Shown here: piece by piece, positions 13,253 to 21,955 of the stretch
Numbering within the stretch: position 1 is the first letter of the stretch
Layout: every line of letters begins with the position of its first letter
Source: Piscinibacter aquaticus
GTDB taxonomy: Bacteria > Pseudomonadota > Gammaproteobacteria > Burkholderiales > Burkholderiaceae_C
Direction: 5' to 3'
DNA: 64,000 bases
Assembly: GCA_007994965.1 (NCBI GenBank)
Contig: VOPW01000001.1
Location: forward strand, 806,001-870,000
Program-made: the position numbers and the translations under genes
The notes under the pieces: generated by a model
Told to the model about the DNA's origin: nothing
The model's input: the letters and a program-made list of their open reading frames with translations, nothing else
Database searches by the model: none

Positions 13253-14024
13253 ATGAGCTCGCGAGAACAGATCCAGGTGGCGGCGGTGATCGAACGCGTC
13301 GCCGCGCCGAACGAATGGGAGGCCTGGGGCTTCCGCCTCGTCGAGGTGGTGCCCGACGAAGGCGTCTTCGGCTCGGCGCCGCGCCGGCTGGTCGATGATG
13401 GCAAGCGCTCGCGCTGGCTGTTCCCCGGCTTCGTCGTCGAGCTGTTCCCGACCGAGCAAGGGCTACTACCTGAACCTGACCTCGGGCCACCCGTCGTGGT
13501 TCGTGTCCTGGGTGATCGGTGAAGACGACCCGTCGATGCCCAAGGTGACGGCGGTGTCGGTGTCCTACATCGAGGCCGACCGCCGCATGGCCTCCGAGGA
13601 GCATGTGCAGACGCTGCCGCTGGCGCCCGAGCTGTGCGAATGGCTGCAGGCGTTCACCAACGCGAATTTCCAGCCGGACGTTCGCCGCAAGGTGCGGGCG
13701 GCGTCGTTCCTCAGCCCGCAGGAACGCGAGCGCCAGGCGCGGCTCGCGGCGGAGGCCGCGGCCGGCGGGCCAACCCCGGTGCCACCCCAGGCGCCGGCTG
13801 CCGCGGCCGACGATGCCCAGAAGGCGCGCAATGCCGCGCTGCGCGAGATCTTCCACGGCGATCCGCACTTCCGGCAGTCCGACGGGCTCGACGTGAGCGT
13901 CGCCGAAGTTCACGAGATCGAAGGCACGCCGACCGGCCGGCAGCGCAAGATCCTGAAGGCGCGCGAGCTGGGCCTGATCGACGACGAACTGCTGGATCAG
14001 CCGCCGCCCGCGCCGCGCGACTAG
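13253..14024 (+). CDS. DUF3305 protein with DUF3306-like C-terminal block
   Basis: The N-terminal half (IQVAAVIERVAAPNEWEAWG, WLFPGFVVELFPTE, YYLNLTSGHPSWFVSWV) is the DUF3305 fold that accompanies formate dehydrogenases. The C-terminal part, after a Pro/Ala linker, reads RNAALREIFHGDPHFRQSDG followed by LDVSV. It closely mirrors the DUF3306 core of the divergent neighbour (RNAAMKKLFSDPHYNVMDG then LDIYI). About 256 residues. One break near 13455 (TE..GYYLNL). The TAG stop lies in the CTAG target of the adjacent insertion sequence and survived the insertion. Function unknown; co-occurrence suggests a part in Fdh assembly or maturation. Confidence 0.8.
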
Positions 14025-14025
14025 C
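14020..14025 (+). repeat. Target-site duplication ACTAGC (left copy)
   Basis: ACTAGC directly flanks the left end of the insertion sequence and recurs at 15052-15057. It fits the NCTAGN target preference known for IS481-type elements. Confidence 0.85.
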
Positions 14026-14965
14026 TGTTGAGTTCCAAGAGGTTGCTCACGGCCGGGATGCGGGTCATGGGCGGCTGGCGGTTCAGGGCGGAGTGTGGCC
14101 GATGCCAGTTGTAGCGGTGCAGGAAGGGCTGCAGAGCGGCCTCGCGCTGCGCTGAGCTGACGTAGGGCTGGGCATAGGCCCACTCGCGCAAGCTGGTCTG
14201 GACGAAGCGCTCGGCCTTGCCGTTGGTCTTGGGGGTGTAGGGCCGAGTCTTGATGTGCCGGATGCCGAGTTCGTCGCAGGCAGCCTTGAAGGTGTTCTTG
14301 TAGCCCGTGCCGTTGTCTGTCATCACGCGCTCGATGCGCACGCCCAGGCTGGCGTAGTAGGCCACCGCTTGGCGCAGGAACTGCACGCAGCTATCGGTCG
14401 TCTCGTCGGGCAGCACCTGCGCGAACGACACACGCGAGTGGTCATCGATCGCCGGTGAACCATCTGCCAGCCGATGCCGCGCTTGGTCGTGCGTCTGTCG
14501 CCGGTGATGCGGTGGCCGATGCCATCGATGTGCATGAGCTTCTTGGTATCCAGGTGCAGCAGCTCGCCTGCAGCTGCGCGCTCGTAGCGCACCACGGGCT
14601 GCGGCGGCTCCAGCGACTTCAGTCGGGACAGTCCCAATCGTTTCATGCAACGGCTGACCGTCGCCACACCGCAGCCGGCCTGCTCGGCGATTCGCCATAG
14701 CGGCCAGCGGCGGCGCCGTAGATCCTCCAGCTGCGCTTGCTTTTGGGCCGTCAGCGCTCGTGGGCTGCGCTTCGGACGAGAACTGCGATCGGCCGTGCCT
14801 GCCGCACCTTCCGCCTTGAAGCGGGCCAGCCACTTGAAGCCCGGTGCGCTTGCTCACGCCTGCCGCCTCACTCGCGGCGGACATCGTCCAACCCTCGTTC
14901 AGCACTCTGCTGACCAGCAGGGCTCGACCTTTGGCCGTCAATCTCGCATGCTTGTGGCTGTTCAT
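14021..14965 (-). CDS. IS481-family DDE transposase
   Basis: Begins MNSHKHARLTAKGRALLVSR, with an N-terminal helix-turn-helix (MSAASEAAGVSKRTGFKWL after repair), followed by an rve-type integrase core. The catalytic residues are the Asp in LLHLDTKKL, the Asp in VMTDNGTGYKN and the Glu in KTNGKAERFVQ. About 315 residues. Breaks near 14845 and 14453 (CCTGG to CCGG) match the error pattern elsewhere, so the transposase may be intact in the cell. The last serine and the stop codon use bases of the duplicated CTAG target, so the insertion itself completed the gene. Confidence 0.88.
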   Translation of the reverse strand: MNSHKHARLTAKGRALLVSRVLNEGWTMSAASEAAGVSKRTGLQVAGPLQGGRCGRHGRSQFSSEAQPTSADGPKASAAGGSTAPPLAAMANRRAGRLRCGDGQPLHETIGTVPTEVAGAAAARGALRARSCRRAAAPGYQEAHAHRWHRPPHHRRQTHDQARHRLADGSPAIDDHSRVSFAQVLPDETTDSCVQFLRQAVAYYASLGVRIERVMTDNGTGYKNTFKAACDELGIRHIKTRPYTPKTNGKAERFVQTSLREWAYAQPYVSSAQREAALQPFLHRYNWHRPHSALNRQPPMTRIPAVSNLLELNS

Positions 14966-15051
14966 CCGTTCTCCTGTCCAGGTTGCGGGAGGTCTCGACA
15001 ACCCCAGCTTCCCAAATCAGGAACGGATGAACAACCTATCGGAACATCACA
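14026..15051 (-). mobile_element. IS481-family insertion sequence, 1026 bp
   Basis: Bounded by imperfect terminal inverted repeats of about 24 bp: left 14026-14049 begins TGTTGAGTTCC, and the right end read inward (15051-15028) begins TGTGATGTTCC. Eighteen of 24 positions match, including the block AGGTTG. The ACTAGC duplication flanks it on both sides. One transposase gene on the minus strand fills it. It sits exactly between two converging genes without removing a base of either: without it the two stop codons would be about 3 bp apart. Confidence 0.9.
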
Positions 15052-16478: not shown

Positions 16479-16574
16479 TGGCGGAAGAGGGTGGGAGTCG
16501 AACCCACCTGGGACCGCAGGGCAGCCCCACCCGGTTTTGCAGACCGGACGCCCCACCGGGGACGATCCTCCTCC
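16479..16574 (-). tRNA. selC: Selenocysteine tRNA with GCA (cysteine) anticodon
   Basis: Folds as bacterial tRNA-Sec. The acceptor stem is 8 bp (GGAGGAGG with CCTCTTCC, one G-U), the T stem 5 bp (GTGGG/CCCAC around TTCGACT) and the D stem extended (GTCCCC...GGGGC). The variable arm is long (GGGGCTGC with GCGGTCCC), position 73 is G and CCA is encoded. The anticodon arm is CCGGT-CTGCAAA-ACCGG, so bases 34-36 (16540-16538) are GCA rather than the standard TCA; only position 34 differs from the usual CTTCAAA loop. G73 and the long arm predict charging by SerRS and conversion by SelA, not charging by CysRS. It lies 8 bases after selB and 15 before selA. Confidence 0.93.
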
Positions 16575-16582
16575 TGAGTCGA

Positions 16583-18496
16583 TCAGCCATCGAAGACCAG
16601 GCGCGGATCACGTCGGAAATGCCGACCGATCTCGTCGCGCCGCGTCAGGCCGATCTGATCGAAATACTCTACCAGCGGAACCGACAGGTGCCGACTGATG
16701 CCCGTGCGCTCGCGCAGCTCCTTGACGTTCAGCCGCTTGTTCGGATCGGCCTGCGCGAGATCCCACGCCTGCACTGCGAGCTCGAGCAGATGCGTGGTCT
16801 GGATGAAGTATTCGGCGCCCACCGCATGCAGGTTCCCCATGCGCTGCAGGCGCTCGAAGACGCGCAGCATCTGGTCGCGGCGCAGGCTGCGGTCGCGCAG
16901 CAGCATCTCGCTCAGGCGCGGCGGGTGGATGCCGCCTTCGTCGAGCCAGGGCTTGAGCCGCTCCCAGAGCTGCTTCTCGGCGCCCTGCAGGGCCGCCGAG
17001 TGGCCGGCCAGCGAGGTGCGGGCCGCTGCGCTTGATCTTGCCGGTTCGGACCAGCTCGTTGAGCAGCATCGCGAACAGCGCGCCGGCGGGCTTGTCGCGC
17101 ACCGCGCGCTGCAGCTGTTCCTGCGTCAGGCCCGGGCTGTCGGGCTTGCGCTGGTGGTGGGCCGCGAGCTGCGCGTTCACCGAGGCGTCGTAGCGTTCCA
17201 GCTGCGCGGGCGAGAACAGCAGCTCGCGCGTGCCATCGGCGATGGCGCGGTGCGGCACCTGGGCGAGCACCGCCTGCCACTGCGGCTCCGGCAGGTTCCA
17301 CAGCGTCGCGAAGCGCCGTGCATCGATGCCCGAGGGCGGCGACTGCGCGAGCAGCGCCGCTAGCGATTCGGCCGGCGTTTCGCGTTCGAGCGCGTCGAGC
17401 GCAGCCACGCGCTGCTCTCTCCGCCGCCGCGTCTCGGGGGCGAAGGCATCGATCACCGTGCCGCCGCCCAGCGTGCGCAGCGCCGATTGATCACGCAGGA
17501 TGAAGCGGTCGCCGCGCAGCGCCGATCGGCCGCTCGAGCTGCAACTGCACACGGGCCTGCCGGCCCGGCGCGATGTTCTCGCCCTCGAGCATCACGACGC
17601 GCGCGCCGACGTCTTCGGCGCCCAGGTGAGGTGCACCGGTGTCCAGTGCGCCAGCGGCCGCCTCGCTGGCCAACAACTGCAGGCGCACGTCGATGCGCTG
17701 GGTCGGGGTATGCAGCGGCTCGGCCAGCACCCAGTCGCCGCGGCGCACGTCGTCGCGCTCGACGCCGGCCAGCGCCAGCGCCAGCCGCTGCCCGGCCACG
17801 CCCTCGTTGGCCTGGCGGTTCTGTGCATGAATCCCACGTACACGAACGGGCAGGCCGCGCGGCGACAGCAGCAGCCGATCGCCCACCGCCACGCGGCCGG
17901 CCACCGCGGTGCCGGTGACCACCGTGCCGATGCCGGCCATGGTTGAAGGCGCGGTCGATCGCCAGCCGGAACTGGCCGCCGCTGCGATCGGCCGCCGGCT
18001 CCGCTTGCGCCTGCGTCAGGTGCGCGCGGAGTTCGGCGATGCCCTGGCCGGTGGTGGACGAGACCGGCAGGACCGGAGCCCCCGCCAGCCCGCTGCCGGC
18101 GAGCAGCGCATGCACTTCCGCCTCGGCAGCGGCGAGCCGCTCGGGCGAGACCAGTCGCACTTGGTCAAGGCGACCACGCCACGGCGCAGCCCGAGCAGGT
18201 CGACGATGGCCGTGCTCGCGCGTCTGCGGCATCGGCCCGTCATCGGCGGCCACCACCAGGAGCACGTGGTCGATGCCGGTGGCGCCGGCGAGCATGTTGC
18301 GAACCAGTTTCTCGTGGCCCGGGACGTCGACGAAGCCCAGCACCTGCCCGTCCGGCAGCGGCAGGTAGGCAAAGCCGAGGTCGATGGTGATGCCGCGCGC
18401 CTTCTCTTCCTTGAGCCGGTCGGTGTCGACGCCGGTCAGCGCCTTGACCAGCGAGGTCTTGCCATGGTCGATATGGCCTGCGGTTCCGATGATCAC
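16583..18496 (-). CDS. selB: Selenocysteine-specific elongation factor SelB
   Basis: About 640 residues. GTPase motifs are G1 [13 protein letters not shown]3 DVPGHEK and G4 TKCD, followed by EF-Tu-like beta-barrels ([11 protein letters not shown]) and C-terminal winged-helix domains that bind the SECIS hairpin ([34 protein letters not shown]). SelB brings Sec-tRNA-Sec to the ribosome only where a SECIS is present. The GTG at 18496 is chosen because conserved sequence begins at the next codon and no ATG is near. Breaks at about 18223, 18157 (CCTGG to CTGG), 17939 and 17030. Divergent from the formate dehydrogenase operon. Confidence 0.93.
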
Positions 18497-18596
18497 GGTG
18501 GGTTCGAGCGCGAAGCTGCACGGGAGGCCGTGATTGTCAGCGTAACCGCCGTGTTCGCGCCGCGGCAGGGCCGGGCGACAAGCTGGCGACGGCCGT

Positions 18597-18611
18597 GCGA
18601 CAGACTGTCGC
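18597..18611. promoter_or_regulatory. Perfect 15-bp palindrome between selB and the fdh operon
   Basis: GCGACAG-A-CTGTCGC, 7-bp arms around one base, in the 242-bp divergent region. It lies 101 bases from the selB start and 127 from the first fdh gene. A dimeric regulator site is possible. No T-run follows, so a terminator is unlikely. Candidate only. Confidence 0.35.
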
Positions 18612-18738
18612 GACGCCGCTAGGGGTTTCCCGCTTGAAGCCACTTCTCGCTTGAGGGGAAATCGCAGGGGCAAGATATGCAGGTGCGTGCATGGGTGCGC
18701 GCTTGAGCCGCAAGGCAGATCGCACGGAGGTCTTCCCG

Positions 18739-18945
18739 ATGAAAAAACCGTCCACTCCCGCTCTGAGCCGCCGCACGGTCTTCGCCGGCGCCGGCGCCGT
18801 GGGGGCGCTGGCCGCCGCCGCGGCGGTGGTTCCCGCCGCACGCGAGGCCACGGTGGCTGCGGCCCCGGCCGACAAGCCCGAGCAGGCCGGTGGCTACCGG
18901 CTGAGCGAGCACGTGAAGCAGTACTACGCCTCGGCCCGCCACTGA
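18739..18945 (+). CDS. Formate dehydrogenase region Tat-target small protein
   Basis: 68 residues beginning MKKPSTPALSRRTVFAGAGA, a twin-arginine signal, then an Ala-rich hydrophobic core and the conserved tail YRLSEHVKQYYASAR. Small Tat-leader proteins of this type regularly precede fdhA in proteobacteria; their role is unknown. The start at this ATG puts the SRR motif at the usual place. It lies 55 bases upstream of fdhA on the same strand and is the first gene of the operon. Confidence 0.87.
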   Translation: MKKPSTPALSRRTVFAGAGAVGALAAAAAVVPAAREATVAAAPADKPEQAGGYRLSEHVKQYYASARH

Positions 18946-19000
18946 GCGGCAGCGGGCTCATCCGATCCTTCCATCCATCAGCCGTCCAACAGGAGGCAGC

Positions 19001-21955
19001 ATGCTGTTGACACGCAAGTCGGCGGGTGACGGGACGACGTCGTCGTCCCGGGCATTCGTCGACAACCTGGCGCGGGGCTTGTCCCGCGCCATGCCCACGA
19101 TGGACCGGCGCAAGTTCCTGCGCCGTTCCGGCCTGGGCCTCGGCGCGGGCATCGCCGCGTCGCAGCTCTCGCTGGTGCGCAAGGCGCAGGCCGCGGATCC
19201 CGCAGCGGCCTCGTCGGGCGGCGCCAAGGTCGAGGTGAAGCGCACCGTCTGCACGCACTGCTCGGTGGGCTGCGCGGTCGATGCGGTGGTCGAGAACGGC
19301 GTCTGGGTCCGCCAGGAGCCGGTGTTCGATTCGCCGATCAGCATGGGCGGCCACTGCGCCAAGGGCGGCGCGCTGCGCGAGAACGCGCATGGCGAGTTCC
19401 GCCTGAAGTACCCGATGAAGCTGGTAGACGGCAAGTACCAGCGCATCTCCTGGGACCAGGCCCTCGACGAGATCAGCGCCAAGATGCTGAAGCTGCGCGA
19501 GGAGAGCGGCCCGGACAGCGTCTTCATCGTTGGCTCCTGCAAGAGCAACAACGAACAGGGCTATCTGCTGAGAAAGTGGATGACGCTCTGGGGCAGTAAC
19601 AACTGCGACCACCGGGCACGAATATGCCACTCCACTACTGTCGCCGGTGTGGCGAATACGTGGGGCTACGGTGCAATGACGAATTCGTACAACGACATGC
19701 GCAATGCGAAGTCGGCGATCTACCTCGGCAGCAATGCCGCGGAAGCTCACCCGGTCTCGCTGCTGCACATGCTTCATGCGAAGGAAACCGGCTGCAAGAT
19801 GATCGTCGTGGACCCCCGGTTCACGCGAACGGCGGCCAAGGCAGATCAATACGTCCGCCTGCGTTCGGGAACGGACATCGCGTTCATCTACGGCGTGATG
19901 TACCACGTGTTCAAGAACGGCTGGGAGGACAAGAAGTACCTCGAGGACCGCGTCTACGGCATGGAGAAGGTCCGCGAGACCGTCCTGGCCGAGTGGACTC
20001 CCGACAAGGTCGAGGCCGTCTCCGGCGTCAACGAGGAGACCTGCTTCAAGGTCGCCAAGACGCTGGCCGAGAACCGCCCGGGCACGCTCGTGTGGTGCAT
20101 GGGCGGGCGCAGCACAGCATCGGCAACGCCATCGTGCGTGCGTCGTGCCTGCTGCAGCTGGTGCTGGGCAACGTCGGCGTCAGCGGCGGCGGCACGAACA
20201 TCTTCCGCGGCCACGACAACGTGCAGGGCATCACCGACATCGGTCCGAACCCCGATTCGCTGCCCGGCTACTACGGCATCGCCGAAGGCTCGTTCAAGCA
20301 CTTCGCTTCGGTCTGGGGTGTCGACTTCGAGTGGATCAAGAAGCGCTATGCGCCGGGCATGATGTCAAGCCGGGCATCACGGTCTCGCGCTGGTACGACG
20401 CCGTTCTCGAGAAGAACGAGAACATCGACCAGCCGAGCAACCTGCGCGGCATGTTCTATTGGGGCCATGCGCCCAACTCGCAGTCGCGCGGCCTCGATCT
20501 GAAGCGCGGCATGGACAAGCTCGACCTGCTGGTTGTGGTGGATCCGTTCCCGTCGGCCACCGCCGCGATGGCAGCGATGCCGGGCAAGGCTGAGGACACC
20601 AACCCGAACCGGGCGGTGTACCTGTTGCCGGCCTGCACGCAGTTCGAGACCAGCGGCTCGGTGACGGCTTCCAACCGCTCGATCCAGTGGCGCGAGAAGG
20701 TCATGGAGCCGCTGTACGAATCGCGCAGCGACCACATGATCATGTACCAGCTGGCGCAGAAGCTCGGCTTCGGCACCGAACTGGTCAAGAACTTCAAGAT
20801 GCAGCAGGTCAAGGGCATGGACGAGCCCGTGCCGGAGGACATCCTGCGCGAGATCAACCGCTCGGTCTGGACCATCGGCTACACCGGCCAGAGCCCGGAG
20901 CGCCTGAAGGCCCACATGCGCAACATGCATGTGTTCGACCCGACGACGCTGCGTGCCAAGGGCGGCATCGACAAGGACACCGGCTACAAGCTCGACGGCG
21001 ACTATTTCGGCCTGCCCTGGCCTTGCTACGGCACGGCCGAGATCAAGCACCCGGGCACGCACGTGCTGTACAACAACGCGCAGCACGTGATGGACGGTGG
21101 CGGCAACTTCCGCGCGAACTTCGGCGTGGAACGCGAAGGCCAGTCGCTGCTGGCCGGCGACGGCTCGCACTCCAAGGGCGCCGAGATCACCACCGGCTAC
21201 CCGGAGTTCGACCACGTGCTGCTGAAGAAGCTGGGCTGGTGGGACGACCTCACCGACGCCGAGAAGAAGGCGGCCGAGGGCAAGAACTGGAAGACCGACC
21301 TCTCCGGCGGCATCCAGCGCGTGGCGATGAAGCATGGCTGCCATCCGTTCGGCAATGCGAAGGCGCGCGCGATCGTCTGGAACTTCCCGGATCCGATCCC
21401 GAAGCACCGCGAGCCGATCTACTCGGTGCGCCCGGAGCTGGTCGCCCAGTACCCGACGCACGACGACCGCAAGGCCTTCTGGCGTCTGCCGACGCTGTTC
21501 AAGACCGTTCAGGAAGCCAACAAGGACATCGGCAAGAAGTTCCCGCTGATCCTGACCACCGGCCGACTGGTCGAGTACGAGGGCGGCGGCGACGAAACCC
21601 GTTCCAACCGCTACTGGCCGAGCTGCAGCAGGACATGTTCATCGAACTGAACCCTGCGGCCGCCAACGACCGCGGCATCCGCAACGGCGACAACGTCTGG
21701 GTGACCACGCCCAGCGGCGCGCGGCTGCGGGTGCGGGCGATGGTGACCGATCGGGTCGACCGCGAGACGGCCTTCATGCCGTACCACTTCGCCGGACGCT
21801 GGCAGGGCGAAGACCTGCTCAAGCATTACCCGGCAGGCGCGGCTCCGATCGTTCGCGGCGAAGCGGCGAACACCGCAACGACCTATGGCTATGACTCGGT
21901 GACGATGATGCAGGAAACCAAGACCTCGGTCTGCCAGATCGAGCGCGCGGCGTAA
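19001..21955 (+). CDS. fdhA: Formate dehydrogenase alpha subunit, TGC at the selenocysteine position
   Basis: About 985 residues, a periplasmic FDH-N-type catalytic subunit that oxidises formate at a molybdenum or tungsten bis-MGD centre. A Tat signal (MDRRKFLRRSGLGLGAG) is followed by the 4Fe-4S motif CTHCSVGC...GGHCAKG. The active-site stretch is DHRARICHSTTVAGVAN then GAMTN; its cysteine (residue 209, TGC at 19625-19627) aligns with selenocysteine of E. coli FdnG (ARVUHGPT). Breaks near 20116, 20374 and 21620 (CCTGG to CTGG) disturb the frame. A strong ribosome site AGGAGG lies at 18991. Head of the structural genes fdhA-fdhB-lipoprotein-fdhC. Confidence 0.95.
19625..19665 (+). promoter_or_regulatory. 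SECIS-like hairpin after the TGC active-site codon of fdhA
   Basis: From the TGC at 19625 the RNA can fold with a lower stem CUCCAC (19630-19635) paired to GUGGGG (19660-19665), an internal loop, an upper stem UCGCC (19641-19645) paired to GGCGA (19651-19655), and an apical loop GGUGU. The loop begins 19 bases after the codon and holds the GU that SelB recognises in bacterial SECIS elements. The codons here (CGA, ATA, ACT, ACT, AAT) are rare for this genome, as expected if RNA structure constrains them. Confidence 0.72.

What the first reader, a model, noticed from the sequence alone, without database searches (positions are those of the whole stretch)
16479..19665. Selenocysteine moved from UGA to the cysteine codon UGC: selC with GCA anticodon and fdhA with TGC
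The tRNA at 16479-16574 has the full tRNA-Sec architecture and G73 but a GCA anticodon. The fdhA codon at the selenocysteine position is TGC (19625-19627), which G34-C35-A36 reads by three Watson-Crick pairs. SelA and SelB are both present, with intact PLP-lysine, GTPase and winged-helix motifs. Two independent loci therefore agree. The errors in this window are insertions and deletions, whereas both changes here are clean substitutions. If SelB delivers Sec-tRNA at this one SECIS-marked UGC while normal tRNA-Cys reads every other UGC, one codon has two meanings by context. As I recall, a 2016 survey of tRNA-Sec genes reported sense-codon anticodons and confirmed selenocysteine at a Cys codon (UGU) in Aeromonas salmonicida, so the principle has a precedent. 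This organism, codon and gene layout look new to me.
Basis: partly seen in the sequence, partly recalled or inferred. Interest (0 to 1): 0.95.

Follow-up and report, generated by a model that had tools for sequence, protein, structure and literature searches.

The report
Selenocysteine at a cysteine codon
A group of Burkholderiales bacteria carries a selenocysteine-type tRNA gene with a cysteine anticodon, together with a formate dehydrogenase gene whose catalytic cysteine codon (UGC) is followed by a conserved, predicted RNA hairpin, so that this one UGC is likely read as selenocysteine while the other UGC codons in the cell would still mean cysteine.

Summary
The window carries one tRNASec gene (Rfam 76.3 bits) with anticodon GCA and G73, beside selA, selB and fdhA, whose catalytic codon is TGC. 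It is not a sequencing error: the same GCA tRNASec and the same TGC-plus-hairpin fdhA occur in 7 further genomes; in 4 of these all three genes were seen intact. In the 8 genes, codons -3 to +11 are the most conserved synonymous stretch of about 290 codons compared (identity 0.95, rank 1 of 283 windows); in 134 other relatives the same stretch is among the least conserved (0.57, rank 253). A 21-nt core is present in 8 of 8 against 0 of 134. SelBs beside GCA tRNAs form one clade (100/100) among SelBs beside UCA tRNAs. selD (6 of 6 tested) and a normal tRNA-Cys with U73 (2 of 2 read) are present. Sec insertion at UGC by SelB is therefore very likely; no selenium was measured. One correction: the tRNA left UGA, but fdhA probably did not. 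No ortholog examined has TGA, so a cysteine gene seems to have become a selenoprotein gene without a stop-codon stage. The principle is in print (Aeromonas salmonicida); this is another lineage, predicted to be widespread.

The parts
16479..16574 (-). selC: tRNASec with GCA anticodon, 8/5 acceptor/T stems, long variable arm, G73, encoded CCA
   Evidence: Rfam RF01852 76.3 bits; stems and G73 computed; aligned with 13 others
16538..16540 (-). anticodon GCA (loop CTGCAAA)
19625..19627 (+). TGC codon of fdhA, residue 209, the predicted selenocysteine site
19616..19666 (+). frozen stretch GCA CGA ATA TGC plus predicted SECIS-type hairpin; paired part 19630-19665, upper stem UCGCC/GGCGA with loop GGUGU, lower stem CUCCAC/GUGGGG
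   Evidence: codon counts, folds
19001..21952 (+). fdhA, formate dehydrogenase catalytic subunit, in several frames here
   Evidence: tblastn with the intact G044 protein; Pfam/NCBIfam of that protein
16586..18496 (-). selB, Sec-specific elongation factor, in several frames here
   Evidence: tblastn; the intact relative scores TIGR00475 415.5 bits and has SelB winged helices
15087..16406 (-). selA, Sec synthase, in several frames here
   Evidence: tblastn; the intact relative scores TIGR00474 558.2 bits

Best explanation
The window holds a tRNASec gene with a GCA anticodon next to selA, selB and an fdhA whose catalytic TGC is followed by a conserved, predicted SECIS-type hairpin, so that SelB likely inserts selenocysteine at this one UGC while ordinary tRNA-Cys would read the other UGC codons. 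Predicted steps: SerRS charges the tRNA with serine (SerRS does not need the anticodon; established knowledge), SelA with SelD's selenophosphate turns Ser into Sec, and G73 would keep CysRS off. SelB would bind Sec-tRNA and the hairpin, which begins two bases after the codon (loop at bases 22-26 counted from the codon's first base), and the tethered complex would outcompete EF-Tu with Cys-tRNA at that codon. Shown by sequence: all components, their co-occurrence in 8 genomes, the frozen stretch, the single SelB clade. Inferred: the fold in vivo, charging, delivery, and that Sec rather than Cys ends up in the protein. Evolution, inferred: a UGA-type sel cluster changed its anticodon (UCA to GCA, one base) and took over an FdhA that had been a cysteine enzyme.
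For: tRNASec body, GCA, G73, 8/5. Same GCA tRNASec in 7 other genomes: 4 of 5 genomes of genus g38, G100, and the Rubrivivax MAGs CAN_BIN27 and SJ720. All 8 have fdhA with TGC and the frozen stretch. Synonymous identity at codons -3..+11 is 0.952, rank 1 of 283 windows, against 0.571, rank 253 of 283, in 134 controls; ATA at -1 in 8 of 8 against 0 of 134; 21-nt core in 8 of 8 against 0 of 134. Over codons -3..+13 no random set of 8 controls (500 drawn) exceeded 0.71, against 0.911. The same two-stem hairpin folds in 8 of 8, upper-stem probability above 0.99. Its loop lies at the same bases 22-26 as in the UGA SECIS of a same-genus FDH (GGUGU here, GGUCU in G007). SelB clade 100/100; among the 30 best SelB loci the adjacent selC is GCA in 5, UCA in 22, none found in 3. 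selD in 6 of 6 GCA genomes tested; G314, the g38 genome without selC, also lacks this fdhA and selD, but is 78% complete. Normal tRNA-Cys with U73 in the two genomes read, G000 and G100.
Against: No selenium or mass was measured. UGC is read by a normal tRNA-Cys in the same cell, so Cys is always a competitor. Cys-type relatives can form a similar hairpin by protein coding alone: of 133 controls folded, 15 have both stems above 0.5 and 41 the upper stem. The single-sequence z-score of the window hairpin is only -1.5. With four lineage representatives the codon's stretch is rank 1 at 0.933, but another window reaches 0.918. selA, selB and fdhA are frame-broken in the window itself. On the FdhA tree the eight genes lie in two places: 0% of 200 bootstrap trees join them, though the AU test does not reject one clade (p 0.365); SelB and FdhA histories differ in part. 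In 7 of 8 GCA tRNAs one acceptor pair is non-standard, against 0 of 6 UCA tRNAs. Other UGC+hairpin genes were not searched for. selD is also found in relatives without selC, so it is not diagnostic.
Confidence: 0.85

Rival explanations
1. The tRNA is a selC*-type tRNA-Cys: a tRNASec-like body that is charged by CysRS and brings cysteine, so that the site is plain Cys.
For: GCA is a strong CysRS identity element and such tRNAs exist (PMC7609411 passages; PMC11415595 passage).
Against: That family is described with U73 and an 8/4 body; all 8 genes here have G73 and a full 5-bp T stem. The normal tRNA-Cys read in G000 and G100 has U73. selA is a single open frame in 6 of 6 other genomes holding it and would be pointless.
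Confidence: 0.06
2. Relic or dead end: the sel cluster survives by inertia or transfer, and tRNA-Cys wins at the UGC, so FdhA is a cysteine enzyme.
For: Orthologs examined are Cys-coded; the reading frames are broken in the window.
Against: Synonymous sites around the codon are frozen across lineages whose FdhA proteins are 76-88% identical; SelB is full length in 6 other genomes and held as one clade.
Confidence: 0.07
3. Sequencing or assembly error turned TCA into GCA and TGA into TGC.
For: Frames of selA, selB, fdhA and selD are broken in this assembly.
Against: Both states recur in 7 other genomes, at least three genera by the tool's group codes (g1, g38, g94).
Confidence: 0.01

Closest known systems
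Aeromonas salmonicida tRNASec with cysteine anticodon (Mukai et al. 2016; original not held, seen through passages of PMC11415595, PMC10778597 and PMC8124441)
   Same: tRNASec with Cys anticodon and Sec at a Cys codon; experimental confirmation there (75Se or MS) is recalled from the 2016 abstract, not seen
   Different: Other lineage. Reviews disagree on the Aeromonas codon (UGC, UGU); here it is UGC in 8 of 8. Here comparative evidence spans 8 genomes and a SelB clade. Whether the Aeromonas gene also descends from a Cys enzyme was not tested.
UGA-type bacterial Sec decoding (selABC with FdnG-type FDH), as in the same genus and in G357/G147
   Same: SelA, SelB, 8/5 tRNASec with G73, hairpin right after the codon
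   Different: Anticodon UCA and codon UGA; the target is another FDH (27% identical to this FdhA in G357/G147)
UAG-type tRNASec (CUA) in Geodermatophilaceae (PMC5330540 passage)
   Different: Stop codon, not a sense codon; no competition with a normal amino-acyl tRNA
selC* tRNA-Cys (PMC7609411 passage)
   Same: tRNASec-like body with GCA
   Different: U73 and 8/4 there; G73 and 8/5 here

Membership tests
Sense-codon Sec recoding by an anticodon-variant tRNASec | tRNASec body above the Rfam cut-off with a non-UCA anticodon | tested here: met
   76.3 bits, GCA; seven relatives 65.9-70.5 bits
Sense-codon Sec recoding by an anticodon-variant tRNASec | selenoprotein gene with the matching codon at the Sec position | tested here: met
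   TGC in 8 of 8
Sense-codon Sec recoding by an anticodon-variant tRNASec | SECIS hairpin directly after the codon | tested here: met
   same predicted hairpin 8 of 8, frozen synonymous sites; SelB binding not testable here
Sense-codon Sec recoding by an anticodon-variant tRNASec | SelA, SelB, SelD encoded | tested here: met
   (frame-broken in the window; selD not tested in CAN_BIN27 and SJ720; no selA on the G100 contig)
Sense-codon Sec recoding by an anticodon-variant tRNASec | selenium in the protein | not testable with these tools
   needs 75Se or mass spectrometry
UGA-type Sec decoding | TGA at the Sec position | tested here: not met
   TGC
UGA-type Sec decoding | UCA-type tRNASec in the genome | tested here: not met
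   the one tRNASec above cut-off is GCA in G000 and in each of the four g38 genomes (E <= 1e-9); TTCA pattern hits L279 (G247) and L291 (CAN_BIN27 genome) are not tRNAs, G100 has no TTCA hit, further TTCA hits were not examined
selC* tRNA-Cys | U73 discriminator | tested here: not met
   G73 in 8 of 8
selC* tRNA-Cys | 8/4 body with bulged T stem | tested here: not met
   5 of 5 T-stem pairs in 8 of 8, acceptor 8 of 8 pairs in the window and 7 of 8 in the other seven

The most novel reading that the evidence does not exclude
A fail-safe selenoprotein codon: one UGC in fdhA is read as selenocysteine when selenium is available and as cysteine when it is not, so the same mRNA always gives a full-length, working enzyme, unlike a UGA selenoprotein, which is truncated. 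The gene became a selenoprotein gene directly from a cysteine gene, by capture of its unchanged Cys codon, never passing through a stop codon; the arrangement has lasted through the divergence of a SelB clade that, by prediction, has over a hundred sequenced members.
Probability: 0.45. Interest if true: 0.88.

Novelty: new variant of a known kind. Interest (0 to 1): 0.77.

Why it matters
It would be a stable, clade-wide case of one sense codon with two meanings set by mRNA context, not an isolated strain. It offers a way for Cys enzymes to gain selenocysteine without a stop-codon step, and a natural system in which competition between SelB and EF-Tu at one codon can be measured. It also shows that annotation can miss such cases: ARAGORN calls these genes tRNA-Cys, and the protein reads as an ordinary Cys formate dehydrogenase. 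If Sec and Cys forms alternate with selenium supply, it is a selenium-responsive enzyme switch built into translation.

Tried and rejected
Sequencing error: rejected, since 7 other genomes agree. selC* tRNA-Cys: rejected on G73 and the 5-bp T stem. UGA as the ancestral codon of this fdhA: no TGA in 84 of 84 order genomes with an ortholog at E <= 1e-120 nor in any listed row among 187 family genomes (listing cut); an unsampled UGA stage stays possible. A single origin of the SECIS-bearing fdhA could be neither shown nor rejected. The window hairpin alone is weak evidence (z -1.53); the case rests on frozen synonymous sites. A class-wide pattern search matched 10 of 340 genomes; only the window's reads GCA, the other 9 read TTCA. 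Plasmid searches gave partial matches only (listed rows 68.8-81.0% identity, at most 53% of the query covered); their selC was not read. Controls: 147 genes were extracted, 4 duplicates and 1 short one (L064) removed, 142 kept (8 + 134). The 134 controls hold seven identical pairs; the held stretches around them show no Cys- or Sec-type tRNA by ARAGORN, and the one string match (L019) is not a tRNA gene, but their whole genomes were not all checked for a GCA tRNASec. One control with an N (L065) was left out of the folding, hence 133. In one search the L098 row used wrong coordinates and is ignored. In one search, L250, L268 and L095 gave no SelB row.

Full report
Observation. The tRNA gene is real and is tRNASec by structure: Rfam RF01852, 76.3 bits against a cut-off of 47, 8-bp acceptor stem, 5-bp T stem, long variable arm, G73, encoded CCA. 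The anticodon is GCA, so ARAGORN calls it tRNA-Cys. The own genome has no second tRNASec above cut-off and has a separate normal tRNA-Cys with U73 (locus L286). fdhA reads TGC at 19625-19627. selA, selB and fdhA of the window are nearly complete in extent but interrupted by frame changes, as is selD elsewhere in the genome; with 77% completeness in 3 contigs I read this as indel error of the assembly, an inference.

Not an error of this genome. The exact anticodon arm was found without mismatch in 6 of 399 family genomes: the window's, four of one genus (g38) and G100. Rfam confirms all six as tRNASec. In g38, 4 of 5 genomes have it. A scan for FdhA relatives (80 loci kept) brought in two more, Rubrivivax MAGs CAN_BIN27 and SJ720, whose genomes carry GCA tRNASec genes. 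Of the 7 other genomes in the window's own genus, 4 have a tRNASec, all UCA. FdhA copies identical over 816 columns link this genus to records named Piscinibacter, so the host is probably Piscinibacter-like.

The codon and its hairpin. All 8 genomes with GCA tRNASec have fdhA with TGC in the stretch GCACGAATA-TGC-CACTCCAC.AC.GTCGCCGGTGTGGCGAATACGTGGGG. Among 142 aligned FdhA genes (8 with the system, 134 controls), synonymous identity over codons -3..+11 is 0.952 in the 8, the highest of 283 windows, and 0.571 in the controls, rank 253 of 283. With four representatives it is still rank 1 (0.933), though another window reaches 0.918. ATA precedes the codon in 8 of 8 and in 0 of 134; a 21-nt core occurs in 8 of 8 and 0 of 134. 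The RNA is predicted to fold into one two-stem hairpin in 8 of 8; of 133 controls, 15 show both stems above 0.5 and 41 the upper stem. So the Cys gene is nearly a SECIS by its protein code alone, and the system has fixed one version. In the UGA SECIS of a same-genus FDH (G007) the loop lies at the same bases 22-26 from the codon, closed by pairs at 18-21/27-30 as here, and reads GGUCU where this reads GGUGU; in G004 the same bases are AGUCU, with the ends of the loop predicted to pair.

Machinery. In the 30 best SelB loci of the family sample, the adjacent selC is GCA in 5, UCA in 22, not found in 3. SelBs beside GCA tRNAs (6 rows) form one clade at 100/100 on a tree of 30, next to UCA types (midpoint root). 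The nearest UCA SelBs are 51-53% identical to the query, against 62% for the least similar intact GCA member. SelB appears in 105 of 399 family genomes at E <= 1e-60, so the GCA form is a minority: 6 of 399. Yet the best 120 SelB homologues, all that were listed out of 6431 in the large protein collection and all 65% identical or more, fall inside the group spanned by known GCA members (support of that node in the quick tree is only 38, and the N-terminal window fragment was not inside it). Their anticodons were not read; that they are GCA is a prediction. selD is present in 6 of 6 GCA genomes tested and was not found in G314, the one g38 genome without selC and this fdhA (78% complete); selD also occurs in relatives without selC.

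Which way it went. FdhA orthologs showed no TGA in 84 of 84 order genomes and in no listed row of 187 family genomes. The genes with the hairpin lie among TGC/TGT genes on the tree, in two places: no bootstrap tree of 200 joins them, yet one clade is not rejected (AU p 0.365). In the UCA outgroups G357 and G147 the sel cluster sits beside a different, FdnG-type FDH with TGA (27% identical); in the nearest UCA types (G279, G255, G320) no such gene was found in the stretch fetched. I infer that the tRNA and SelB lineage left UGA and captured an FdhA that was a Cys enzyme, without a stop-codon stage. The five GCA genomes tested have no TGA-bearing FDH among their FdhA-like matches (G100, CAN_BIN27 and SJ720 not tested).

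Mechanism, shown and inferred. Shown: tRNA, factors, co-occurrence, freezing of the stretch. Predicted or inferred: the hairpin in vivo, serine charging, conversion to Sec, SelB delivery at UGC against EF-Tu with Cys-tRNA. E. coli work with the UCA tRNA reports 75Se-labelled product and activity at UGC before a SECIS to a lesser extent than at UGA and UGG, and its activity table shows little gain at UGC (PMC3834832 passages), so a matching anticodon would matter. Because relatives work with Cys, low selenium would still give full-length enzyme; the fail-safe reading follows but is untested.

Known or new. Reviews report tRNASec with Cys anticodons and use of UGC/UGU (PMC8124441, PMC11415595, PMC10778597; passages read). 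The 2016 source was not held. In the literature searches no listed title or abstract start names such a system in Burkholderiales; that is only as wide as the held library and what was listed.

Noticed in passing
16479-16574 and loci L013, L284, L143-L147: 7 of 8 GCA tRNASec genes have one non-standard pair in the acceptor stem, against 0 of 6 UCA genes; possibly tied to keeping EF-Tu off a tRNA that reads a sense codon.
   Followed up: partly
window D arm of selC, about 16557-16563: The window tRNA is one base shorter than 7 of 7 GCA relatives in the D arm (93 against 94), near a C run.
   Followed up: no
L014/L147 against window/L013/L143-L145/L153: The frozen stretch sits on two FdhA backbones although SelB is one clade; gene conversion of the stretch or transfer of the cluster would explain it.
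   Followed up: partly
14021-15001: A transposase-like ORF (IS3-type by its sequence, recalled, no library search) lies next to selA.
   Followed up: no
18691-18945: Small ORF with a twin-arginine-type leader before fdhA, as often found in front of FDH operons (recalled).
   Followed up: no
G167:C116:6874-6886: A second GGTCTGCAAAACC hit in G167, not examined.
   Followed up: no
fdhA, 15-codon windows starting 90-95 codons after the TGC: A second stretch with high synonymous identity (0.92-0.94) in the GCA-type fdhA set.
   Followed up: no
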